Origin: a virus
DNA: 33,637 nt
Virus record (IMG/VR): IMGVR_UViG_3300035034_000418
Location: 1 to 33,637 of that record
Direction: 5' to 3' (one strand)
Shown here: positions 1 to 33,637 of the stretch, one piece after another
Numbering within the stretch: position 1 is the first letter of the stretch
Layout: every line of letters starts with the position of its first letter
Position numbers and translations under genes: made by a program
Notes under the pieces: generated by a model
What the model was told of the DNA's origin: nothing
Databases searched by the model: none
The model's input: only the letters and a program-made list of their open reading frames with translations

Positions 1-500
1 CAAAACGAAGTGACTAATGAGACAAAATCTTGTATTAAATCATCTTCATCTTCAACAACTTCGTTGATGACAATTATTTCTCCGCCGAATAAAGTTTCAA
101 TGTATTTAAAACCAAATCTAGTTAATCTATCTTTATGTTCAACTACAATACGAGTAACCTTTTTATTATTAAGTATATCTAACAATTTCTTCCGTGAATC
201 ATTCAATCCACTTCCAACTTCCACAACTGATTCATTGACCACCCAACCCTTCGCTGAACAAAATTGTTCGACCCGTTCTTTCTGAGTTATGAGGTTTGGT
301 TTGTTTTCCGACGAACTTACACGAGAATATACTACAGTATAATCTTCAGTCACGTTATCATCCGGAAGTTCAACTAATATCGTGCCTGTGCTGGTTTGGA
401 ATGCTCCGTCGATTGATTTCGACTGCCATAAATTAAATGCTCCTCTGTAAGTGTAACCATTTAATTTTGCCCATTTTGAAAGTTTGATTCGTTGGTTCAT
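1..500 (-). CDS. tnpA: IS607-family serine recombinase (TnpA), 3' end outside window
   Basis: The reverse strand from ATG at 500 reads to the window edge without a stop (about 166 codons visible). The first 45 residues are a MerR-like helix-turn-helix (KLSKWAKLNGYTYRGAFNLW, then a GTILVELP wing), as in IS607 transposases. A resolvase domain follows: YSRVSSSE (residues 58-65, containing the nucleophilic serine), NLITQKERVEQF, then EHKDRLTRFGF, a hallmark of the IS607 group, and GGEIIVINE. IS607 TnpA catalyses DNA-sequence-tolerant serine recombination. Its usual partner, TnpB, would lie downstream, beyond position 1, and is not visible. IS607 elements lack inverted repeats, so the element's other end cannot be placed; it should lie between 500 and about 600. 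It could also be a stand-alone phage recombinase. Confidence 0.88.
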   Translation of the reverse strand, partial: MNQRIKLSKWAKLNGYTYRGAFNLWQSKSIDGAFQTSTGTILVELPDDNVTEDYTVVYSRVSSSENKPNLITQKERVEQFCSAKGWVVNESVVEVGSGLNDSRKKLLDILNNKKVTRIVVEHKDRLTRFGFKYIETLFGGEIIVINEVVEDEDDLIQDFVSLVTSF

Positions 501-601
501 AACTATAAGTATATACATTTACAAGTTTTTTGTTATTTTTCAACAATTAATATAAACGAATATTATACTTTTCATTATGATCCACTGGTATAAATATAAT
601 C

Positions 602-1372
602 TCATTCGAAAAACTGTGACGTTATCGGCTCAACATCATGTTGTGTAATAATCGGATCTACTGTATTAGCATCAGACGGGTAATCAACACACTTATGTTT
701 GAGAGTATTAAGAATACTTTTACGTTCCTTCTTGTTGGTCATAATCCAGAAATATCTATGTTTACCGCTTTCTTTTTTTCTCCAGAAAGTAGCACCAACG
801 GCTTTTTTCAACTTCTCAACGTTATGACTTCCATATCTTTCAGATACCGTTCTTGAGTGAATCCACTTATACGGTTCCTTAGTTAGAGATACAGAGAAGT
901 TAGGCATCAACGCAATAGCAGTTCCTTGATAATAAGCATTAGTTGCTTTATAGATACCGCCTTGATGACCCTGTTCACTATCCGCATAGCTCATGATAAC
1001 CTTAATACGATTATGATTTCTTTTGATATGACGTAATGCGGCTCCTATACAATAACTCTCAATATTTTTTCCGTAAGAGTCCGCAATCCACAGTCGAGTC
1101 AGTTCCCAGACTTCTGATATATCAACCTCTTCACTAAAAGATGCGGCAGCCGATCTACCAACAGGACATCCAAAAACCATACATCCAATTAATTTGTCAT
1201 CCTTTACATCAAAGAAATCATGGTCGGTATCGGATTTGTAAAATACTCCAATCGCCAATGAACACATAGTCCAAGCGTGACTATAATGATTTTTTACAAT
1301 TATATCCTTAGCAACACTCGCTTGAATTTCCTTAATGTATACTTTATCTGTATCTACAAAATCTTCTTCCAT
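602..1372 (-). CDS. mom: Mom-like DNA adenine modification protein (GNAT-type fold)
   Basis: The 256-residue protein matches the pattern of phage Mu Mom-like proteins: NHYSHAW near residue 28, a strand LIGCMVFGCP (61-70), ELTRLWI (90-96), and SYADSEQGHQGGIYKATN (128-145) followed by YYQGT. Mom proteins have an acetyltransferase-like fold and convert adenine in phage DNA to a methylcarbamoyl form that blocks host restriction. That role here is inferred from family resemblance. Translation starts at ATG 1372, with AGGATAAT just upstream; the stop codon of the helicase C-piece lies inside this ribosome binding site, so the two are translationally coupled. The tail from about residue 205 is basic and then acidic and looks family-variable. 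A different GNAT activity is possible. Confidence 0.75.
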   Translation of the reverse strand: MEEDFVDTDKVYIKEIQASVAKDIIVKNHYSHAWTMCSLAIGVFYKSDTDHDFFDVKDDKLIGCMVFGCPVGRSAAASFSEEVDISEVWELTRLWIADSYGKNIESYCIGAALRHIKRNHNRIKVIMSYADSEQGHQGGIYKATNAYYQGTAIALMPNFSVSLTKEPYKWIHSRTVSERYGSHNVEKLKKAVGATFWRKKESGKHRYFWIMTNKKERKSILNTLKHKCVDYPSDANTVDPIITQHDVEPITSQFFE

Positions 1373-1373
1373 A

Positions 1374-1859
1374 TTATCCTAACTCCGATAACGAACTTTT
1401 ACCTACCGACATGCTATGCCACTTTTCTCTTAAATGGTTTCTTACGTCAGTTTCTCCATTCGCAAGTTTCTTTTGAAGTTCTTTTCCTTTTTCGGAATTT
1501 GTTTCATAAAGCTCCAACGAACCACATGAGGTATCAAAAGCAGCGTTATAAGTCAATCCATCAGGACCGAAACGATTTTTAATAACATGAACTCTAGCTG
1601 TATTATTCAACTTGTCTTCCATCTTACGACTTAACGACATAACAAAGTCAGCAGTCATAATCTTACGATATGAATCCGAAATTGAATCAGCTTCAATAAT
1701 ATCTTCTTTAGCAGCTGAATTGTGGGTATAGATATCATTGGCATAAAACATATGTGTATCATCAACTGTAATATCCATAGTTAATTTTTCACCAATGAGT
1801 TCTATCGATTCTATTTCGTCCAGATTGAAATCTGCGGGTATTAGATTATGTTCTTTCAT
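1374..1859 (-). CDS. 41: Replicative DNA helicase, C-terminal piece with split-intein C-part
   Basis: Residues 1-47 are an intein C-fragment: TMDITVDDTHMFYANDIYTHN gives intein blocks F and G, ending in the His-Asn that performs the last splicing step. Ser48 is the first C-extein residue. Residues 48-161 are the C-terminus of a T4 gp41/DnaB-type helicase (MTADFVMSLSRK, then VIKNRFGPDGLTYNAAFD, the arginine-finger region). The partner N-part is at the end of the 2099-3220 gene, after ASQSNR. The insertion site and Int-C resemble the known gp41-8 split intein. The ATG at 1859 overlaps the stop of the decayed endonuclease frame upstream (ATGA). Without splicing this piece lacks both Walker motifs, so it is not a helicase on its own. 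Confidence 0.93.
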   Translation of the reverse strand: MKEHNLIPADFNLDEIESIELIGEKLTMDITVDDTHMFYANDIYTHNSAAKEDIIEADSISDSYRKIMTADFVMSLSRKMEDKLNNTARVHVIKNRFGPDGLTYNAAFDTSCGSLELYETNSEKGKELQKKLANGETDVRNHLREKWHSMSVGKSSLSELG

Positions 1860-2374
1860 ATTTCAGCATGTTCCATTATGTAATTAATACACTGTTTTAA
1901 AGTTTTATGTTTATCTTTATTGTAATTAAATTCCTTGATTCGTAGAACACTATACCCCTTGATTTCAGATACATGTCTCTATGTTTGTCTATTTGTTTCG
2001 TTTCTGTTAATCTATGTCAATAACTTCCATCGAATTCTATAATGACGTTTAAGCACTTGAAGTCAACATAAATAATTTTAGAATCTAACATACCCCATCT
2101 ACTTTTTTTTGGTGAAAAGTTTGTCTCCTGCCTGTAAACCCGTTCTGATGGATTTCATGTTTCCATGTTGTGTGGGAAATCTATGTTCTGCTGATACGTC
2201 TATGTATTTTCCACTTTTCAATTTTATTCTATACGTTGGCTTTGATTCTGATTCAAATATATGAGATACTTTCTTATATCCTTTATGCGTCAAAACCTCA
2301 TCCCCCACAGCCAATTCCTTAGCCCTTATGTGTTTTTTATTTTTTTCATACACGATACTATCTATACAAAAACA
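1719..2374 (-). other. Split intein at helicase site 2 (Int-N 2102-2374, Int-C 1719-1859)
   Basis: Int-N starts at Cys283 of the 2099-3220 product (CFCIDSIVYE, block A), with block B at VSAEHRFPTQHG, and is 91 residues long. Int-C is the first 47 residues of the 1374-1859 product. These are canonical split proportions, like gp41-8. Splicing would join ASQSNR to SAAKED, restoring the helicase just after the Walker B and sensor region. The DNA between the halves is a dead endonuclease gene. Confidence 0.9.
1856..2091 (-). pseudogene. Decayed Vsr-like homing endonuclease between split-intein halves
   Basis: The gap between the two helicase genes reads, from ATG 2091, as a Vsr-like nuclease core: MLDSKIIYVDFK, NVIIEFDGSY, then TGA where Trp is expected, then H and a DKHRDMYLKSRG segment. 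The frame is then lost at a GGGG run; one extra G would restore YSVLRIKEFNYNKDKHKT and the end at 1856. So there is one nonsense and one frameshift mutation in about 78 codons. The IEFDG(x)YWH and GYxVLRI(x)E signatures are those of the endonucleases found between the halves of fractured phage genes. The stop overlaps the start of the next helicase piece. Only the nuclease core remains; no zinc finger or DNA-binding repeats are present. Confidence 0.75.
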
Positions 2375-3220
2375 ACGATTTGATTGACTCGCAGTCCAAC
2401 ATGGGATTTGTAACTCACCTGCGACAGCACGGAGTTCTTCATAAATACCACCAGCTTCAGAATACGAATTAGCATTCTTATCAGCGTGAATAGGTCTTAA
2501 GATGTCAGCATAATCAACAACCAACAAATCAACTTTTTGACTTGTCAATGTTTGAATTCTCTCAACATAGTTTTTCAACGTCAAAGCCGATACCGTCTTA
2601 ATAGGATAGTATTTGATTTTCATGAAACCATCGATGTTTGACAATGCCTTAATAACAGCGTCTTTATTATCTACGATGTTTTGGAAATCAATCCCTGTAA
2701 AGTTACAGTCATATCGGCGACCAACGTATTTTTGACCGAGTTCCAATGTGAAGTGAACCACATTTTTACCTTGTTTCATTGCCTCAACACCTAACTTAGT
2801 TAAGATCCACGAATTGTGACTTAAAATTCCATTTGAGTAATAACAGTGTACGTCTTTTACACTGATGTCATACAATATCTCATCATCACCTTTATTAAAA
2901 TTGGTAATTTTGGTTGTGCCGTTGTCACATTCTACTAACTGACCTTTGGTTAGTTTAGATACATACTCCCACTCCCCATTCGATTTTAATCTATGACTAA
3001 GTGAAGTCTTCAGTGTTTTACCATTTCCAAAATACGTAGTTACTGTAGATTGTTTCTCCGTTCGGAACGCGGTTTGTATCACATTCCACCCAAACGGGGT
3101 CTTAACACACAACTCAAATGGTATATTAAGTTGAGCGTGTTCTTTATTCGGAATTTCCAATGTATCGAATAAATCTTTTATCTTTATAGTTTCTTCTGTA
3201 TTGCGTATTAGTAGTTTCAT
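2099..3220 (-). CDS. 41: Replicative DNA helicase, middle piece flanked by two split-intein parts
   Basis: Three segments are visible in 373 residues. Residues 1-136 form a long intein C-fragment with block B (KTSLSHRLKSNG, 71-82) and blocks F/G (ILYDISVKDVHCYYSN, GILSHN), ending His-Asn. Residues 137-282 are gp41 helicase: SWILTKLG completes the Walker A loop, VDLLVVDYADIL (230-241) is Walker B, and GIYEELRAVAGELQIPCW and TASQSNR are motif 3-like. Residues 283-373 are the N-part of a second intein starting CFCIDS. The protein must therefore be spliced at both ends. After both reactions the helicase would be about 204+146+114 = 464 residues, close to T4 gp41. ATG 3220 overlaps the stop of an endonuclease remnant (ATGA). 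Confidence 0.94.
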   Translation of the reverse strand: MKLLIRNTEETIKIKDLFDTLEIPNKEHAQLNIPFELCVKTPFGWNVIQTAFRTEKQSTVTTYFGNGKTLKTSLSHRLKSNGEWEYVSKLTKGQLVECDNGTTKITNFNKGDDEILYDISVKDVHCYYSNGILSHNSWILTKLGVEAMKQGKNVVHFTLELGQKYVGRRYDCNFTGIDFQNIVDNKDAVIKALSNIDGFMKIKYYPIKTVSALTLKNYVERIQTLTSQKVDLLVVDYADILRPIHADKNANSYSEAGGIYEELRAVAGELQIPCWTASQSNRCFCIDSIVYEKNKKHIRAKELAVGDEVLTHKGYKKVSHIFESESKPTYRIKLKSGKYIDVSAEHRFPTQHGNMKSIRTGLQAGDKLFTKKK

Positions 3221-3576
3221 GTTATAAAATCTTTTATAGTTTGTATTGTGTTTTCTCTATCGTTGTGCCATTCCCATTCCCACCCGACTAGCGTCTTATA
3301 TCCCATTTCATTTAATATCCGTATACGATTTACGTCCCTTTATCACCTAAAATCTTACGAATTTGGGGAAAGTTTTTCCGATTCAAGTCGTGACAGTTCC
3401 CATAATATGTTGTGTATTTGCCAACCATACGCATTGTCATATCCGTCTACGATTCCTGATATGTCGTATTTTTTCATAGGATTTATCCACAATACAACTG
3501 GGTTTCCTATATTTCCCACTACTTCTATACCGAGTTCGGTATATTTAACATCGATCTTCGTATTAGGACCGATACA
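2813..3576 (-). other. Asymmetric split intein in the helicase Walker A loop (site 1)
   Basis: The helicase frame is interrupted after ACAGAGK by Cys205 (CIGPNTKIDVKYTE, block A only) and resumes after GILSHN with SWIL, so the break is inside the P-loop GAGK|S. Blocks B, F and G all lie in the 136-residue C-part. This is the reverse of the usual proportions and matches the class of atypically split inteins with a short N-part. How much of the 73 residues after Cys205 is needed is unclear; the part after about KYTE looks unrelated to an intein and may be insertion debris. Confidence 0.82.
3217..3339 (-). pseudogene. Remnant of a second Vsr-like endonuclease in helicase gap 1
   Basis: In a different frame from both helicase pieces, the gap reads RDVNRIRILNEMGYKTLVGW, then EWEWHNDRENTIQTIKDFIT and a TGA that overlaps the next start codon as ATGA. 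This is the C-terminal part of a Vsr/DUF559-type fold (xxRxxxLNxxGYKxLxxWExEW), the same piece that survives in gap 2. The nuclease core before it is missing or unrecognisable; TAA and TGA codons lie directly upstream in this frame. The stretch 3355-3510, which extends the preceding Int-N frame, may be part of the same decayed insertion. Confidence 0.6.
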
Positions 3577-4188
3577 TTTTCCAGCACCAGCACAAGCAGT
3601 AATAACTCCAAGTTCACCAGCACCTAAACCACCATCCATGATATTATCAAGAACCTCTAAGTTTGTTTTAATTGTATCACGGCAATCATCCTCAAGACGC
3701 TCAGCAATTTCAGTTAGATAATCGTGACCATCATCACGTTCCATACCAGCCTTCAGAGCTTCTTCAACTGTATGTTTTATCTCTTCATATCTTCCTTCCT
3801 TGAGAAAGTCGGCTGACTCCATGATAGCAGCTTTCATAGTCTGATTTTGACAGAATTCTAAGAAAGTCTCTCTGATATATGTTAAGTCAGTGTCCTGTAA
3901 TTTAGCGTGGACAATTTTCAAGTTCTCAACGATAGCTTGTTTCTCAACCACATCGGACACCACATCTAACTTGTGTTTAAATACATCCAACGTTGGCAAA
4001 TCTTTATACTCCGTAAAGTAGTCCAGTGTTGTTCTTAATATCCATTTATGAGACTCATTTTCGAAAAAATCCTCATGTACAATATCCAATATTCGTTCCA
4101 AGAACGACTTGTCTGATAGTATTCCTGCCAAACATTTGTTCTGGAATGCTGATCCAAATTTCTTTAAATTATCTACTTTGTGTTCCAT
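3355..4188 (-). CDS. 41: Replicative DNA helicase, N-terminal piece with split-intein N-part
   Basis: Residues 1-204 are the N-terminal domain and the start of the ATPase domain of a T4 gp41/DnaB-type helicase: an early AFQNKCLAGILSDKSFLERI, then LEVLDNIMDGGLGAGELGVI and the first half of Walker A, ACAGAGK. Cys205 begins the intein N-part (CIGPNTKIDV). The final 60 or so residues (WINPMKKYDISG, YGWQIHNILWELSRLESEK) match nothing I recognise. The leader GTAAATAAACATG closely resembles those of the SSB and RNase H genes and has no strong Shine-Dalgarno. A 16-base perfect palindrome lies 12 bases upstream. The product has only half a P-loop, so it cannot bind ATP normally until trans-spliced. 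Confidence 0.92.
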   Translation of the reverse strand: MEHKVDNLKKFGSAFQNKCLAGILSDKSFLERILDIVHEDFFENESHKWILRTTLDYFTEYKDLPTLDVFKHKLDVVSDVVEKQAIVENLKIVHAKLQDTDLTYIRETFLEFCQNQTMKAAIMESADFLKEGRYEEIKHTVEEALKAGMERDDGHDYLTEIAERLEDDCRDTIKTNLEVLDNIMDGGLGAGELGVITACAGAGKCIGPNTKIDVKYTELGIEVVGNIGNPVVLWINPMKKYDISGIVDGYDNAYGWQIHNILWELSRLESEKLSPNS

Positions 4189-7439: not shown

Positions 7440-8768
7440 TCAATCTTCCAACTCATCGTCGGTGTATTCGAGTTCATCGCTTTCACATTGGGTATGGTCT
7501 TTATATTTCATTATATGAATGTCACATAACTTTTTGTAAAGATCATCTTTTACAACTGTATTAGTTTTCAATAGATTAGTGAAACTAGCCTTAGTCAACT
7601 CATACGTCATACCATCAGAACAGTCGTATTTATATTTAGTTCCTGAACCGCCTACTTCAACAAGATTCTTTAATGCGTCTGGATCTTTTTTCAAAGCATT
7701 CTTTTTCACATCTTGAGTCTGAGCATTCTTTAGAACTTTCGCTTCTTTAAGAGTTTCCAACCAATTTCCATAGTTATCCAACCCACGGTCAAAGAAGATA
7801 TCGAATTCGGAACTTCTCATTGGGGGGCCCATTCGATTCTTGGTAATTTTACATTTAGTCTTAATACCAATAACTCGTTTTTGAGCATCCTTAATCTGAC
7901 CAATCGCTTGTAGTCGCAATCTCAAACTAGCATGGAAGCCAAGAGCTTTACCACCACTTGTTGTATATGGATCACCAAACATTGCGTTCATTTTCACACG
8001 AAGTTGGTTGGTGAAAATTAAACAGATTTGTTGACGAGCAATCATCGTTGTAATCTTTCGTAGAGCCTTACTGATAATGATAGCCTTTGCCGTAGCATAA
8101 CCATCTTTACCGTGTTCCGATTCCATTTCTGTTTTAGTCGATGCAGCAGCAACAGAGTCGATTACGATAGTAACCAATCGATCTTTGTTTGACGAACGAA
8201 CCTTCTGAATAATCATTTCCATGTGTTCGAAGATTTCCTCAACGTGGTCACATGAAATATACAAAAGTTTCGAAATGTCAACACCAATCGCTGTAACGAA
8301 GTTCTTATCAAGAGAAGCTTCAGTATCAATAAAGATAGCAAGTCCACCCTTCTTTTGTGTTTCCGCTAAAGCGTGCATTGCTAACAATGTTTTACCTGAA
8401 TTGTGATTTAACATCCCGTTCCCATAGTAACATTGTTCTGGGTGGTCAACTGCTATATCCACGATATTATAGTCTCCGATGTAATCAACGGAGGTTACTA
8501 CACTGAAAGAATCGTCATCACATTTTATACAGTTAATCGTCGGTTTTAAATCTTTACACTGTAACCATCCGGTGTCTGTGAAAAACAAATGACCATCCGA
8601 AACTTTTATGGATGTCTCATTTTCAAGGGTTACTTTATATGTCTTCTTAATTCCCTTTTCTATATAATCGGATATTGGAGAATATTCACCACCGATGGTT
8701 TTTACTTTCACTGACTTTCCTGTATTCAGCAAATCTTTTACTTCTTTAATTTGTATTTTCATAAACAT
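7440..8768 (-). CDS. uvsX: UvsX recombinase, C-terminal piece with long split-intein C-part
   Basis: Counting from the most upstream ATG (8774), residues 1-125 are an intein C-part with block B-like IKVSDGHLFFTDTG and blocks F/G YNIVDIAVDHPEQCYYGN, GMLNHN. Ser126 starts the RecA core: SGKTLLAMHALAE completes Walker A, GLAIFIDTE follows, LVTIVIDSVAA is Walker B, QLRVKMNAMFGDPYTTSGG is the L2/DNA-binding region, and IKTKCKITKNRMGPP lies in the C-lobe. The acidic tail (ESDELEYTDDELED) is typical of UvsX/RecA. Start choice: AGAGG lies directly against ATG 8774 but 6 bases before ATG 8768, so 8768 fits better; ATG 8762 is also possible. Spliced UvsX would be about 409 residues (T4: about 390). Confidence 0.94.
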   Translation of the reverse strand: MFMKIQIKEVKDLLNTGKSVKVKTIGGEYSPISDYIEKGIKKTYKVTLENETSIKVSDGHLFFTDTGWLQCKDLKPTINCIKCDDDSFSVVTSVDYIGDYNIVDIAVDHPEQCYYGNGMLNHNSGKTLLAMHALAETQKKGGLAIFIDTEASLDKNFVTAIGVDISKLLYISCDHVEEIFEHMEMIIQKVRSSNKDRLVTIVIDSVAAASTKTEMESEHGKDGYATAKAIIISKALRKITTMIARQQICLIFTNQLRVKMNAMFGDPYTTSGGKALGFHASLRLRLQAIGQIKDAQKRVIGIKTKCKITKNRMGPPMRSSEFDIFFDRGLDNYGNWLETLKEAKVLKNAQTQDVKKNALKKDPDALKNLVEVGGSGTKYKYDCSDGMTYELTKASFTNLLKTNTVVKDDLYKKLCDIHIMKYKDHTQCESDELEYTDDELED

Positions 8769-8825
8769 CACCATCCTCTATAATTATTCCACAATTACAT
8801 CGATTATTGTATCTTCCGTGACACA
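8400..8825 (-). other. Highly asymmetric split intein in the UvsX Walker A loop
   Basis: Int-N is only 13 residues, CVTEDTIIDVIVE (8787-8825), then TAA. Int-C (8400 to 8768 or 8774) holds all other intein blocks and ends LNHN. Splicing joins GLEH to SGKT, giving a perfect P-loop GxxxxGKT. Only about 10-15 bases separate the stop from the restart, and no endonuclease lies between. The restart has its own AGAGG. Confidence 0.9.
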
Positions 8826-9095
8826 ATGTTCCAATCCTGTAATTTCTGTAATACGACCTGCTGGATATCCACCCACTGGTCTATTTGCCATTATAATATC
8901 CAACTGATCGTTTCCACTTGGAATCCAATCGGATATGTTTGAAGGGTCATCTTCATTATCATCACCAAATACGAAAGCTACGTTGCCTCCGTCTTTATTG
9001 GCTTTGTTTAACATTTCTGCTATTTCATCAACCAAACCATCACGGTCATCAGCAGTCATATCGACCTCTACTTTTTTCGAGCCATTCTTTGCCAT
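8784..9095 (-). CDS. uvsX: UvsX recombinase, N-terminal piece with 13-residue split-intein N-part
   Basis: Residues 1-90 are the N-terminus of a RecA/UvsX protein. A helical, acidic start (DGLVDEIAEMLNKANKDGG) is followed by SDWIPSGNDQLDIIMA, PVGGYPAGRITEITGLEH, which leads into the Walker A loop. At residue 91 the intein begins with CVTEDTIIDVIVE and the gene ends. The leader AAGGAAATAAATGG combines a Shine-Dalgarno with the AAATAAA element seen before the SSB and helicase genes. The SSB terminator lies upstream at 9131-9158, so this gene must have its own promoter or rely on readthrough. It has no ATPase activity by itself because the GKT lies in the other piece. Confidence 0.93.
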   Translation of the reverse strand: MAKNGSKKVEVDMTADDRDGLVDEIAEMLNKANKDGGNVAFVFGDDNEDDPSNISDWIPSGNDQLDIIMANRPVGGYPAGRITEITGLEHCVTEDTIIDVIVE

Positions 9096-26795: not shown

Positions 26796-28448
26796 TTAGA
26801 GATTTCTATTATAACTCCTCCATATATACTTTATATTCCCACAGTCATATATTTTATCATAGCCGTTTAACTGCATATTCTCATACTCTGACAACTCAGT
26901 GTGAAATACTTTCAATTTCTTATGCAAAATCGATTTTCTAAAATTGAAACGGTGGTGTCTTATATTATAACCATTCTTGTAATACCAATAGTTTACCTGA
27001 GTTAAATGTGAAAAGACGAAACCCATCTTATCATACACCGATTGGTGAACAGCGGTAAACCTTCTATCTGCATATGTAACCACTGTGTTCGGTGAGTTGG
27101 TTCTAATGAAATGTTTAAATAATTTACTGGCGATTCCAATTATATTTGTTTTTGTAGCAAACCTCATCAATTCGAATTCTGATGGTGATGGGTGACTCCC
27201 CAGTGATATTCTACCACTTCCAAATGTCATAACCGCTACCAATTCGTCATTGTAATACGCGCCATATCGTATTGAACTCTTATCGTTTCCTTGTATATGA
27301 TGTGATTCTAAGAAGTCCCGTTTTGTATTAGGTGAAATTTCTTTAATTATACACTTTCTGGCATAAATCTTGTAATTCACACACCCCAATTTATGTCTCA
27401 GCTTTTCTTTTATAACATCTTTCTTGTTAATCCATTCATCTTCAAATATATGAATTAACTGAACACCCATCTCTTCACATAATTCGGTCTTTTGTAAATG
27501 ATATAGTTTATCGACTGATGAATATGAGTGATAATATAGTGAGTTGTATTCAATCGCTATTTTCTTATTCTCTATATATATGTCCAATTCTCGGTCTTTA
27601 ATTACGTCTCTACGGTGTTGAGTGAGTTGATTCGGCGGCATAATCTCTTCTAAGAATTCTACAATCTCATTCTCACATACCGACCCTTTATTTAAGGGAT
27701 AACAATTTAGACATCTAGGAAGATGTCCACCGTCAATGTGATCTTTAAATTCACAGTCACATCTTAAACATTTAAACTTGTAATGATTCCTTCGGTCGGT
27801 TGTGATGTATTCATCAAACTCGAATAATGGAACTACCTTTAAATTCAATTTATGAACGGTCTGTAGCTTATTATAAAAACTCTTTTTATATGATTGATGC
27901 TTTCGATCCTGAATTTCTCTGACCTGAGACGGATGAGTTACTCCGTAGTTGTTCGTATAGTAGTTACATATCTTTTGTTTGATTTCATCAGATGCAAACA
28001 CATTATCGACTCCATAACGTTCGTTTACAGTATCCTTTACAGCTTTTTTGGTAGATTCCAACTGTGACATGTTATCCACTCCGAATTTATCTTTTATATG
28101 TTGTTTGAACTCATCGGTTTTAAAATATGAATCCGTCCCGTAATGATCAATACAACTCTGTTTAATCTTTTTCTTAACATGATCAGATTTAGATACGTTA
28201 TCCACTCCGTATTTTTTTATACATGTAGATTTGGCTTTGTTTGGATTTACGAAACTACCATTACCGTAGCGTTCGAGCTTTGTTTGTTGTATCTTCGACA
28301 ACCTATCCACATCGTTTGCTGTATATTGGGATGAACATTTACCGTTACAAAACTTCTGCGCTCGTGATATCAAGCTTTCAAATTCACTGCCACAGTGTTG
28401 ACAATGTTGAGTGTGCCAATATTTTGGATTTTTGTCATTCGTAACCAT
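26796..28448 (-). CDS. Large Vsr-like homing endonuclease (copy 1)
   Basis: This 550-residue protein has an N-terminal zinc finger (CQHCGSEFE, FCNGKCSS). A series of about five DNA-binding repeats of the form (I/V)xxRYGVDNVxxSDxxKxK follows (about 45-180), with a second zinc finger (CLRCDCEF, CLNC) at 227-249. The Vsr-type nuclease core is RELDIYIENKKIAIEYNSLYY (286-306), then LIHIFEDEW. A conserved C-terminal domain follows (SHHIQGNDKSSIRYGAYYND, VVTYADRRFTA, YDKIYDCGNIKYIWR). Free-standing homing endonucleases cut phage genomes that lack them and spread by repair. It lies directly after the tail tube gene. AGGTTGAG sits before ATG 28448, and reading is intact, so it is probably functional. 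Confidence 0.86.
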   Translation of the reverse strand: MVTNDKNPKYWHTQHCQHCGSEFESLISRAQKFCNGKCSSQYTANDVDRLSKIQQTKLERYGNGSFVNPNKAKSTCIKKYGVDNVSKSDHVKKKIKQSCIDHYGTDSYFKTDEFKQHIKDKFGVDNMSQLESTKKAVKDTVNERYGVDNVFASDEIKQKICNYYTNNYGVTHPSQVREIQDRKHQSYKKSFYNKLQTVHKLNLKVVPLFEFDEYITTDRRNHYKFKCLRCDCEFKDHIDGGHLPRCLNCYPLNKGSVCENEIVEFLEEIMPPNQLTQHRRDVIKDRELDIYIENKKIAIEYNSLYYHSYSSVDKLYHLQKTELCEEMGVQLIHIFEDEWINKKDVIKEKLRHKLGCVNYKIYARKCIIKEISPNTKRDFLESHHIQGNDKSSIRYGAYYNDELVAVMTFGSGRISLGSHPSPSEFELMRFATKTNIIGIASKLFKHFIRTNSPNTVVTYADRRFTAVHQSVYDKMGFVFSHLTQVNYWYYKNGYNIRHHRFNFRKSILHKKLKVFHTELSEYENMQLNGYDKIYDCGNIKYIWRSYNRNL

Positions 28449-29222: not shown

Positions 29223-30719
29223 ATGGGAAGGCCAAGAAAAAATCCACTGACAATTAAAAAGATATGTGAACATTGTAATAAGGAATTTGAAATTTCATAT
29301 AACAAGAAGAATCAGAGATTTTGCAACAAACACTGTTCGAACTCATGCAATACAACTAAAGATAAGATACGGAAATCTCAAAATATTACATTTGATAAAA
29401 AATACGGCGGACATCCAATGACAACTGACAATGTAAAAAAGAATTTTCAGTCCGCTATGGAATCTAAATATGGAGTAAAACATGCTCTTCAAAACTCCAA
29501 CATACTCAAAACCATGAAATCCACTAAAATTGAGAGATATGGAGATGAGAATTACAACAACGAAGAGAAAAGAAAACAAACCTGTCTACAGAGATATGAC
29601 GTTGATAACATAAGAAAATGTGAGTGGTATAAACCTATATTGGCAGACCACCGAAGAAATAACCATTATGAGTATCTATTAAACTATTTCAAAGAGAGAA
29701 AATTAACTCTTCTTACTACACCGCAAGATTATAATGGTATCTGGTCAGGCGACAAATATGAATTTTGTTGTGATGATTGTAATAATAGATTCGTGAGGCC
29801 GTTATATTCTATTGCAAGCATAGAATGTGACGTATGTAATCCCAGCCCAAGATATAAAGAAGAGAACTCCTTACATACATTTCTATTAGAAACGTGTAAC
29901 GATTTAATAATAGAACGTAGAAACCGAATAATACTGAAAGGTCAAGAGTTGGATTTTTTAATACACAAAAAAAGATTAGCAATTGAGTATAATGGGTTAT
30001 ACTGGCATTCAGAATCTAGAGGAAAAAATAAAATATATCATTTAAATAAAACCGTTCGGAGTTTAACTATGGGATATAATTTAATACATATATTTGATTA
30101 TGAATGGAATACAAAACAGGAAATTGTAAAGAGTATAATTCGTTCAAAAATTGGTGAGAAGGTAGAATTGTTATACGCCAGAAATTTCAAAGTTAAACAA
30201 GTCGAATCTAACATTTCAAATTCATTCTTAATCAACAATCATATACAAGGAAAAGACAACGCTCCTATAAGATATGGGTTGTTTAACAAACATGATGAAT
30301 TAATGTCATTGATGACATTCCGCAAGTCTAGGTTTGATAAATCTGTAGAATATGAGTTGAGTCGTTTTTGTAATATATTAAACGTTTCTATCACAGGTGG
30401 AGCAAGTAAATTATATTCCCATTTTGTTAAGAATCATAATCCCAACAGCGTAATATCATATTCCGATAGAAGATATTTCGATGGAAATTTATATAACGTA
30501 TTAGGATTCGATTTTATCAACAATACTGCGCCTGGATTCCATTTTGTTTCGCCGGATTATAAAACACTATACAATTGGCAACAGTTCCAAAAACATATGT
30601 TGAAAGATAAACTAACAGGGTTCGATCCAAATTTGACCGCATGGGAGAATATGAAAAACCACGGCTTTGACCGAATATGGGATTGTGGAAATTCCAAATG
30701 GATATGGAAGTCTACTTAA
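29223..30719 (+). CDS. Large Vsr-like homing endonuclease (copy 2), plus strand
   Basis: The 498-residue protein is the same family as the 26796-28448 product: zinc finger (CEHCNKEFE, FCNKHCSN), repeats (IERYGDENYNN, LQRYDVDNIRK), a second zinc finger (CCDDCNNRF, CDVC) and the nuclease core KGQELDFLIHKKRLAIEYNG (about 239-258) with LYWHSES and LIHIFDYEW. The C-terminal domain (NNHIQGKDNAPIRYGLF, VISYSDRRYFDG, FDRIWDCGNSKWIWKS) is closely alike. It is inserted between the tail tube gene and the 73-residue gene, on the opposite strand. Its stop overlaps the stop of the convergent gene over TTAA (30716-30719). TTGACA at 29163 with a weak -10 about 17-18 bases on is a possible promoter. Confidence 0.86.
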   Translation: MGRPRKNPLTIKKICEHCNKEFEISYNKKNQRFCNKHCSNSCNTTKDKIRKSQNITFDKKYGGHPMTTDNVKKNFQSAMESKYGVKHALQNSNILKTMKSTKIERYGDENYNNEEKRKQTCLQRYDVDNIRKCEWYKPILADHRRNNHYEYLLNYFKERKLTLLTTPQDYNGIWSGDKYEFCCDDCNNRFVRPLYSIASIECDVCNPSPRYKEENSLHTFLLETCNDLIIERRNRIILKGQELDFLIHKKRLAIEYNGLYWHSESRGKNKIYHLNKTVRSLTMGYNLIHIFDYEWNTKQEIVKSIIRSKIGEKVELLYARNFKVKQVESNISNSFLINNHIQGKDNAPIRYGLFNKHDELMSLMTFRKSRFDKSVEYELSRFCNILNVSITGGASKLYSHFVKNHNPNSVISYSDRRYFDGNLYNVLGFDFINNTAPGFHFVSPDYKTLYNWQQFQKHMLKDKLTGFDPNLTAWENMKNHGFDRIWDCGNSKWIWKST

Positions 30720-32837: not shown

Positions 32838-32847
32838 TATAAATATC
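32838..32847 (-). promoter_or_regulatory. GATATTTATA motif before the 83-aa gene
   Basis: The minus strand reads TTTGATATTTATAACCATG, with the motif 3 bases before the start. It overlaps the stop of the endonuclease gene (32846), so the gene would be expressed apart from the endonuclease. Confidence 0.4.
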
Positions 32848-33637
32848 AAACAGTTGGAGATTCCCATATAAATTTTAAATTCCCACAATCCCAGATTCTA
32901 TCATATCCGTTTAACTGCATATTTTGCCACTCAGTTAAGGTTGGGTCAAAATTTTCTAACTTGTCTTTTAACTTGTGTTTTTGAAAGTTAACTCTGTTGA
33001 GTATTTGGGAGTTGGTAATGTAATGATACGACGGGGGTGTATTTCCAACAAATTCAAATCCCAGGTTTAAGTAAACCCCTCCATTAAAATATCTCATGTC
33101 TGAGTAACTTACAATTGATATCGGATCATTGTGTTTAACAAAATATTTAAACAGTTTCGATGCTCCCCCAACTATTCGTGTGTTGAGGATGTTACAATAT
33201 CTACTCATTTCATATTGAACCTTCTTATCAAATCTTGATTTACAGAAAGTCATAACAGATACTAATTTCCCATCCATAAAAAGTCCGATTCGTGTAGATG
33301 ATCTATCAGACCCCTGAATATGGTTTGCGTTCAAAAATGCAGAACATATACTAACAGGTATTTCCTTTATAATACATTTTCTTGCATAAACTATATTATC
33401 ACATGAGCTGAATCGGTTACGTAATATGCTTTTTACTATTTCCGTTTTGTCAAACCATTCGTTTTCAAATACCTGTATCAATGTGATGTTCTTCTCAATA
33501 CACATATCCCGTTTCGATAAATGGTATTGTTTGTCTTTACCACCGGAGATTTCCGAATGCCAATATAATCCATGATATTCCACTCCCAACTTCAATTGTG
33601 GATCGAATACGTCGATTTCCATCTTATTATCTAACGG
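32846..33637 (-). CDS. Vsr-like homing endonuclease (copy 3), 5' end outside window
   Basis: The reading frame is open to the window edge; the visible part begins with the nuclease core LDNKMEIDVFDPQLKLGVEY, then HGLYWHSEIS and LIQVFENEW. It keeps the full C-terminal domain (NANHIQGSDRSSTRIGLFMD, SIVSYSDMRYFNGG, YDRIWDCGNLKFIWE). The N-terminal zinc finger and repeats seen in the other two copies should lie beyond 33637. It is closer to copy 2 than copy 1 by eye (VGGASKLFKYFVKH versus TGGASKLYSHFVKN). The gene is upstream of the 83-residue gene and reads through to its leader. Confidence 0.85.
   Translation of the reverse strand, partial: PLDNKMEIDVFDPQLKLGVEYHGLYWHSEISGGKDKQYHLSKRDMCIEKNITLIQVFENEWFDKTEIVKSILRNRFSSCDNIVYARKCIIKEIPVSICSAFLNANHIQGSDRSSTRIGLFMDGKLVSVMTFCKSRFDKKVQYEMSRYCNILNTRIVGGASKLFKYFVKHNDPISIVSYSDMRYFNGGVYLNLGFEFVGNTPPSYHYITNSQILNRVNFQKHKLKDKLENFDPTLTEWQNMQLNGYDRIWDCGNLKFIWESPTV

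What the first reader, a model, noticed from the sequence alone, without database searches (positions are those of the whole stretch)
2813..3576. Site-1 helicase intein and UvsX intein share P-loop location and near-identical split position
Both interrupt a Walker A loop of a RecA-fold ATPase, both keep only block A in the N-part, and both C-parts begin with an Ile/Lys-rich strand leading to (V/I)KDL(L/F). So two inteins of one atypical split class occupy the equivalent site in two proteins of one phage. Cross-splicing, which would produce helicase-recombinase hybrids, would need to be avoided. The residues after about KYTE in the helicase N-part look foreign to inteins.
Basis: partly seen in the sequence, partly recalled or inferred. 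Interest (0 to 1): 0.7.

Follow-up and report, generated by a model that had tools for sequence, protein, structure and literature searches.

The report
Two unrelated split inteins in phage ATPases
An uncultured T4-like phage makes its replicative helicase and its UvsX recombinase as separate pieces that should be stitched together by self-splicing inteins cut at the same odd place; relatives show that the two inteins are different lineages, each apparently cut by its own homing-endonuclease gene, and that the cut can heal again.

Summary
At 2813-3576 (minus strand) the Walker A loop of a gp41/DnaB-like helicase is split (GAGK|S) by an intein whose N-part holds only block A. A second intein splits the UvsX Walker A loop (GLEH|SGKT). 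Both are cut between beta2 and alpha1 of the intein fold, the published S1 position of VidaL and PolB16.

The insertion points differ by three residues. The C-parts are 30% identical and fall in different clades: helicase with gp46 and TerL P-loop inteins, UvsX with VidaL, PA5oct UvsX and PhoH (94/96; an AU test cannot exclude a joint clade). The residues after KYTE are not foreign: they are a conserved ~55-residue module under purifying selection, in line in three unsplit relatives and predicted ordered.

In relatives each gap holds an endonuclease gene, of a different PD-(D/E)XK-like kind at each site. The window keeps a 40-residue remnant at the helicase site and none at UvsX. At the helicase site, endonuclease and intein co-diverged (Mantel r 0.81), so unsplit relatives nested among split ones are probably re-fusions. 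The UvsX IntN is 13 residues (13-14 in 13 contigs); the shortest characterised is 15. Trans-splicing itself is inferred, not shown.

The parts
3577..4188 (-). helicase N-extein, residues 1-204, ending GAGK
   Evidence: PHROG phrog_19 163-366, E 2.5e-24; model closest to T4 gp41 in PDB
3535..3576 (-). IntN-1 core, block A: CIGPNTKIDVKYTE
   Evidence: translation; Cys1 and G-N-T pattern conserved in relatives
3358..3534 (-). IntN-1 tail: inserted module between beta2 and alpha1 (strands plus a helix)
   Evidence: conserved in ~20 contigs; in line in unsplit L108, L126, L163; AF2 pLDDT mostly 73-83; pN well below pS
3355..3357 (-). stop codon TAA of the helicase N-part
3217..3339 (-). remnant of a homing endonuclease C-terminus (40 aa RDVNRI...DFIT plus stop TGA, which overlaps the ATG of the C-part)
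   Evidence: blastp E 1.5e-9 against the endonuclease in the same place in L106, and matches to the other helicase-gap endonucleases
2813..3220 (-). IntC-1, 136 aa, blocks B, F and G, ending SHN|S
   Evidence: 58-63% identical to 7 relatives; TS..H, DISV, SHN invariant
2375..2812 (-). helicase middle extein, 146 aa (SWILTK...SQSNR)
   Evidence: PHROG phrog_19 367-507; DnaB_C E 7.5e-10
2102..2374 (-). IntN-2, 91 aa, second and canonically split intein of the helicase
   Evidence: Pfam Intein_splicing E 3.5e-10
1862..2098 (-). frame-shifted endonuclease remnant at helicase site 2
   Evidence: weak blastp matches, best E 0.002
1719..1859 (-). IntC-2, 47 aa, ending THN|S
   Evidence: Pfam Intein_splicing C-end, E 0.018
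1377..1718 (-). helicase C-extein
   Evidence: PHROG phrog_19 515-588
8826..9095 (-). UvsX N-extein, 90 aa, ending TGLEH
   Evidence: PHROG phrog_97 1-82
8787..8825 (-). UvsX IntN, 13 aa: CVTEDTIIDVIVE, followed by TAA
   Evidence: 13-14 aa IntN in 13 different contigs
8400..8774 (-). UvsX IntC, up to 125 aa (MVMFMKIQIKEV...LNHN); start could also be the ATG at 8768 or 8762
   Evidence: alignment A6; VidaL PDB 6vgv E 2.9e-5 over residues 2-120
7443..8399 (-). UvsX C-extein (SGKTLL...)
   Evidence: Pfam RecA E 2.3e-54; phrog_97 83-256

Best explanation
Both are working trans-splicing inteins cut at the S1 position, but of two separate lineages that reached the same architecture in parallel. In each lineage an intein in a phage P-loop is cut between beta2 and alpha1 at the place where relatives carry an endonuclease gene (MTES_1575/DUF559-like at helicase GK|S, phage-endonuclease-I/TnsA-like at UvsX |SGK), leaving an N-part with block A only. 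The halves would associate after translation, Cys1 and Ser+1 would react, and the helicase and recombinase P-loops would be made whole; neither half has a complete Walker A before that. In the helicase lineage the intein already held a small module between beta2 and alpha1, which stayed on the N-part. The endonuclease can then decay, leaving a split intein without its own endonuclease (the window), and in some relatives the halves have fused again. Shown: anatomy, conserved catalytic residues, conserved split, conserved tail, endonuclease families, decay states, unsplit relatives nested among split ones, co-divergence of helicase-site endonuclease and intein. Inferred: actual trans-splicing, that the endonucleases caused the splits and home, direction split to fused, role of the tail.
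For: Seamless extein joins. Conserved blocks A, B, F, G and Ser+1. The same split in many independent contigs. The empty helicase site, GSGKSWVLSKLG and variants, in L012-L083 shows mobility. Tail conserved, in line in L108, L126, L163, predicted ordered in the window and in L163 (pLDDT mostly 73-83 and 78-89), pN much below pS. Endonuclease ORF of about 240-340 aa in the helicase gap of 16 of 20 listed loci; gap of -3 to 51 bp without one in L005, L107, L110, L124; 40-aa remnant in the window, E 1.5e-9. UvsX-gap endonucleases of 367-438 aa in five loci, no blastp match at E 0.01 to the helicase-gap set, remnants in L178, L184, L194. Two clades with 94/96 support. Helicase-site endonuclease and C-int identities correlate, r 0.81, permutation p 0.0002. 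Unsplit L163 (95/86) and L126 (99/99) nested among split relatives.
Against: No splicing assay exists. The AU test does not reject a helicase+UvsX clade (p 0.216); C-parts give only ~124 columns. The deeper root is not inferred, so fused-to-split changes are not strictly excluded in any one lineage. The endonucleases are homing endonucleases by family and position only; Pfam scores are mostly below the curated cut-offs.
Confidence: 0.78

Rival explanations
1. One reading: the two inteins are one lineage that was already split at S1 and copied itself from one P-loop to the other within these phages.
For: Same split slot, both in P-loops, 30% identity clearly above shuffles (z 8.3), HHalign 96.7% between C-part profiles; AU test does not reject a joint clade.
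Against: The window helicase C-int is closer to the gp46 intein L127 (41%) and the TerL intein of Kuja (35%) than to UvsX (30%); the best tree separates them (94/96); different endonuclease families; three-residue site offset; the helicase module is absent from UvsX inteins; unsplit members occur in both lineages.
Confidence: 0.1
2. The unsplit inteins are ancestral and S1 splitting with endonuclease insertion happened several times within each lineage; no re-fusion ever occurred.
For: Unsplit forms exist in both lineages and in gp46 and TerL relatives; the tree root is not inferred.
Against: Helicase-site endonucleases are homologous and co-diverged with the inteins across the group, pointing to one old acquisition there; unsplit L163 and L126 lie inside clades of split forms; several endonuclease-free but still split states look like steps towards fusion.
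Confidence: 0.15
3. The splits are decay: helicase and UvsX pieces are pseudogenes or read-through artefacts and no trans-splicing takes place.
For: Endonuclease remnants are frame-shifted or stopped; in the window the UvsX halves are in one frame, separated only by TAA TTA TAG.
Against: Purifying selection on N- and C-parts of relatives; catalytic residues kept; the same 13-14 aa UvsX IntN in 13 contigs; UvsX and a replicative helicase are expected to be needed; an AGAGG precedes the UvsX C-part start.
Confidence: 0.04
4. The tail of the helicase N-part is a piece of the lost endonuclease fused onto IntN rather than part of the intein.
For: In the window the tail and the endonuclease remnant are in the same reading frame.
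Against: Relatives have the same tail and in addition a complete, separate endonuclease ORF after it; unsplit inteins carry the tail in line.
Confidence: 0.02

Closest known systems
VidaL split intein (PDB 6vgv/6vgw; 16-aa IntN, S1 split)
   Same: S1 split; VidaL IntC aligns with window UvsX IntC from residue 2 to 120, E 2.9e-5; groups with the UvsX inteins
   Different: UvsX IntN here is 13 aa, not 16; 24% identity. From memory only: Neugebauer 2017 names a VidaL helicase intein and a VidaL UvsX intein; that paper could not be opened
PolB16 OarG split intein (15-aa IntN; PMC10189870)
   Same: S1 split with a very short IntN
   Different: Ser1 and Ser+1, in a PolB gene; 15 aa is stated there to be the shortest characterised, the window UvsX IntN is 13
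AceL-TerL, GOS-TerL, Cat (S2 split; 25-37 aa IntN; PMC13014065, PMC11766414)
   Same: short N-part, phage P-loop ATPase; TerL inteins are among the closest relatives of helicase IntC-1
   Different: split after alpha1 (S2), not before; no S1 module
   Same: gp41 helicase in pieces, endonuclease ORF between the halves; window site 2 is of the canonical split type
   Different: from general knowledge those inteins are canonically split; site 1 and UvsX are cut at S1 and the UvsX-site endonuclease belongs to another family
TerL1-a 'classic' P-loop inteins (PMC5050341; Kuja, Kevin, PhiW-14)
   Same: inserted between Walker A Lys and Ser/Thr, as the helicase intein is; 27-35% identical C-parts
   Different: Kuja and Kevin forms are contiguous

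Membership tests
Split intein (class 1) | Cys/Ser1 at the N-junction, block B T/SxxH, block F, block G HN, nucleophile at +1 | tested here: met
   Helicase: C1, TSLSH, DISV, SHN|S; UvsX: C1, SDGH, DIAV, NHN|S
Split intein (class 1) | Intein and exteins divided between two genes, exteins rejoining without loss | tested here: met
   PHROG positions 366|367 and 82|83
Split intein (class 1) | Trans-splicing activity | not testable with these tools
   needs expression of both halves
S1 (VidaL-type) atypical split | Split between beta2 and alpha1; N-part with block A only | tested here: met
   Block A in N-part, alpha1 KIKDLF / IKEVKDLL starts the C-part; AF2 of the unsplit relative shows strand, module, then helix
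S1 (VidaL-type) atypical split | IntN of 15-37 aa, as in the characterised atypical inteins | tested here: not met
   13 aa in UvsX, 73 aa in the helicase: two outliers
VidaL lineage | C-part grouping with VidaL | tested here: inconclusive
   UvsX intein groups with it at 94/96, not starred; the helicase intein does not
Fractured gene with homing endonuclease | Endonuclease ORF between the halves | tested here: met
   Met in relatives; the window keeps a 40-aa remnant at helicase site 1, a frame-shifted one at site 2 and none at UvsX
One lineage for both window inteins | The two C-parts form a clade | tested here: inconclusive
   best tree separates them; AU p 0.216

The most novel reading that the evidence does not exclude
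S1-split inteins arise by insertion of an endonuclease gene between beta2 and alpha1, and the process is reversible: after the endonuclease is lost the halves fuse again, independently in at least two intein lineages with two different endonuclease families. The UvsX branch carries the shortest natural IntN (13 aa), and the helicase branch carries an extra folded module on IntN that may steer pairing of the right halves.
Probability: 0.5. Interest if true: 0.72.

Novelty: new variant of a known kind. Interest (0 to 1): 0.58.

Why it matters
How atypically split inteins arise is unclear. Here two lineages show graded states (split with endonuclease, split with remnant, split without, unsplit), so the origin and reversibility of intein splitting can be tested on real sequences. 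The 13-residue UvsX IntN is shorter than any characterised natural one (15), which matters for protein semisynthesis. One polypeptide carrying IntC-1 and IntN-2, alongside other P-loop inteins in the same cell, is a natural test of split-intein orthogonality.

Tried and rejected
(1) Tail of the helicase N-part as foreign sequence: rejected, conserved and in line in unsplit relatives. (2) Tail as a piece of endonuclease: rejected, relatives have both. (3) Tail against Pfam (best 0.0074, two members, PAS_GdpP) and PDB profiles (best E 0.83): no credible match. (4) tblastn of the IntN-1 with tail in the phage collection: no match. (5) Aligning IntN and IntC fragments with unsplit inteins without extein anchors misaligned them; anchoring with exteins fixed it. 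(6) The genome-contig scan with the IntC-1 profile found no relative, and the helicase region has no DNA match in isolated phages, so the host is unknown. (7) Literature: Dassa 2009, Burton 2020 and Neugebauer 2017 were not held; searches for Lake Vida and T4Lh gave nothing. (8) VIA-align and Foldseek rows for the L163 model were filled by the helicase domain, so they say nothing about the fold of the module.

Full report
What is there. The finding's interval, 2813-3576 on the minus strand, runs exactly from the first residue of the helicase intein's N-part (Cys205 of a 277-aa protein, 4188-3355) to the last Asn of its C-part (start of a 373-aa protein, 3220-2099). Exteins match one family without a break: PHROG DnaB-like helicase positions 163-366 in the N-part, 367-507 in the middle part, 515-588 in a third part (1859-1374) that follows a second, canonically split intein (IntN-2 91 aa, IntC-2 47 aa); UvsX positions 1-82 and 83-256. 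The helicase is therefore a three-piece protein needing two trans-splicing events, and UvsX a two-piece protein. The predicted structures of the window N-part and of an unsplit relative match T4 gp41 best.

Where the inteins sit. Helicase: AxxxxGK|S, between Walker A Lys and Ser, called the 'classic' P-loop insertion (PMC5050341). UvsX: GLEH|SGKT, three residues earlier. So the sites are neighbours, not equivalents. Both splits fall between beta2 and alpha1 of the intein fold, the published S1 position (VidaL, PolB16; PMC13014065). The C-parts open with alpha1 (KIKDLF; IKEVKDLL) and hold blocks B, F and G; the N-parts hold block A only.

The 'foreign' tail. Scans of IMG/VR with IntC-1 and with the tail gave several dozen contigs with the same helicase intein, besides 72 loci (L012-L083) with an empty site, which I read directly. 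The tail after KYTE is present in nearly all, with an invariant WI.P and GWQ core in the first eight and total IntN lengths of 33-74 aa. In L108, L126 and L163 the intein is one chain and the tail lies in line between block A and alpha1. AlphaFold2 gives it three to four strands and a helix: window residues 219-272, pLDDT mostly 73-83, and L163 residues 224-279, pLDDT 78-89. Between relatives pN is well below pS in the tail (for example 0.12 against 0.83, 0.08 against 0.60; weakest in the near-identical pair L005/L006). It is a conserved S1-inserted module of this intein lineage, kept on the N-part at splitting. It has no credible match in Pfam or PDB. Its role is unknown; a docking or pairing role is a guess.

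What splits the genes. In 16 of 20 listed helicase loci the gap between N- and C-part holds an ORF of 242-341 aa with MTES_1575/DUF559-like nuclease similarity, weak by Pfam cut-offs but repeated, and PHROG endonuclease matches. L005, L107, L110 and L124 have gaps of -3 to 51 bp. The window keeps a 40-residue C-terminal remnant (E 1.5e-9 to the L106 ORF) whose TGA overlaps the ATG of the C-part. In the UvsX gap of L176, L179, L182, L183 and L192 there is instead a 367-438 aa ORF whose best family matches, found in three of the four members scanned, are phage endonuclease I and TnsA-like nucleases. It has no blastp match at E 0.01 to the helicase-gap set; remnants remain in L178, L184 and L194, and only 9 bp in the window. 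So the two sites are served by different nuclease families.

UvsX IntN. In 13 contigs with a split UvsX P-loop intein the IntN is 13 aa (10 contigs) or 14 aa (3), mostly CVTEDTxIxVIIE followed by a stop. The shortest characterised natural IntN is 15 aa (PMC10189870). Three UvsX inteins are unsplit: L177, L186/L187 (the contig whose helicase intein is also unsplit) and L195/L196. In the window the two UvsX halves are in one frame, separated by TAA TTA TAG, with AGAGG before the C-part start.

Relationship of the two inteins. Window IntC-1 and UvsX IntC are 30% identical over 117 positions, z 8.3 against shuffles: true but distant homologues. IntC-1 is closer to a gp46/SbcC-like P-loop intein (L127, 41%) and to a TerL intein (Kuja, 35%) (families). 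In the careful tree the GK|S/T inteins (helicase, gp46, TerL) and the |SGK inteins (UvsX, PA5oct UvsX, VidaL, PhoH) are on opposite sides of a branch with 94/96 support; an AU test does not reject a helicase+UvsX clade (p 0.216; p 0.183 with the earlier row set). In that earlier, larger row set the VidaL group sat on the helicase side instead, so the deep placement of VidaL depends on sampling. I take parallel splitting as the better account, not as proven.

Direction of change. At the helicase site, endonuclease and IntC identities correlate across 15 loci (Mantel r 0.81, p 0.0002), and the trees share groups. So the endonuclease was probably present in the ancestor of the sampled split forms. 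Unsplit L163 and L126 are nested in supported clades of split forms (95/86 and 99/99). The simplest reading is loss of the endonuclease and re-fusion of the halves. The deep root is not inferred, so this remains an inference; no such congruence test was made for the UvsX endonuclease.

Cross-splicing. Not testable here. The sharper hazard is inside the helicase: the middle polypeptide carries IntC-1 at its start and IntN-2 at its end (2102-3220), the arrangement that circularises a protein if the two fragments pair. L004 has the same arrangement.

Known or new. Split inteins, the S1 split, P-loop sites and fractured gp41 genes with endonucleases are known. New here, as far as the held literature shows, are the S1 module retained on IntN, the 13-aa natural IntN, endonucleases of different families at the S1 split of two lineages, and the graded series down to unsplit forms. 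Several key papers could not be read, so priority claims are provisional.

Noticed in passing
window 2102-3220 (-): One polypeptide carries IntC-1 and IntN-2 around the middle helicase extein, the layout that makes cyclic proteins if the halves pair; the same in L004.
   Followed up: partly
L085:5980-8781: A second UvsX split intein (site before TTSGGKA) with a 15-aa IntN CVDPITTKIKIRYKP and a Vsr-like endonuclease between the halves; IntCs at the same site in L004 and L113 form one clade.
   Followed up: partly
L127-L144: A further family of P-loop inteins in gp46/SbcC-like genes at GK|S/T, many with a 29-aa IntN; L134 and L136/L137 unsplit.
   Followed up: partly
L089 (Pseudomonas phage PA5oct): The annotated UvsX-like recombinase begins with an IntC; the ORF upstream looks like an endonuclease. 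The UvsX N-part was not looked for.
   Followed up: partly
L088 (Delftia phage PhiW-14): gp17 is annotated without its first part; a 43-aa IntN ends a separate ORF just upstream, so this TerL intein also looks split.
   Followed up: no
L091:1096-3415: PhoH-like P-loop gene beginning with an IntC (|TGKT) directly after an endonuclease-like ORF in a 462-kb uncultured phage.
   Followed up: no
window 602-1372 (-): Mom-like DNA modification protein (Pfam E 1.4e-45) directly after the helicase genes.
   Followed up: no
window 26796-28448 (-), 29223-30719 (+), 32846-33622 (-): Three Hef-like free-standing homing endonuclease genes; the third also has weak Mom similarity in its C-terminal half.
   Followed up: no
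window 1-520 (-): An ORF cut by the window edge that looks like an IS607-type serine recombinase (by eye, not searched).
   Followed up: no
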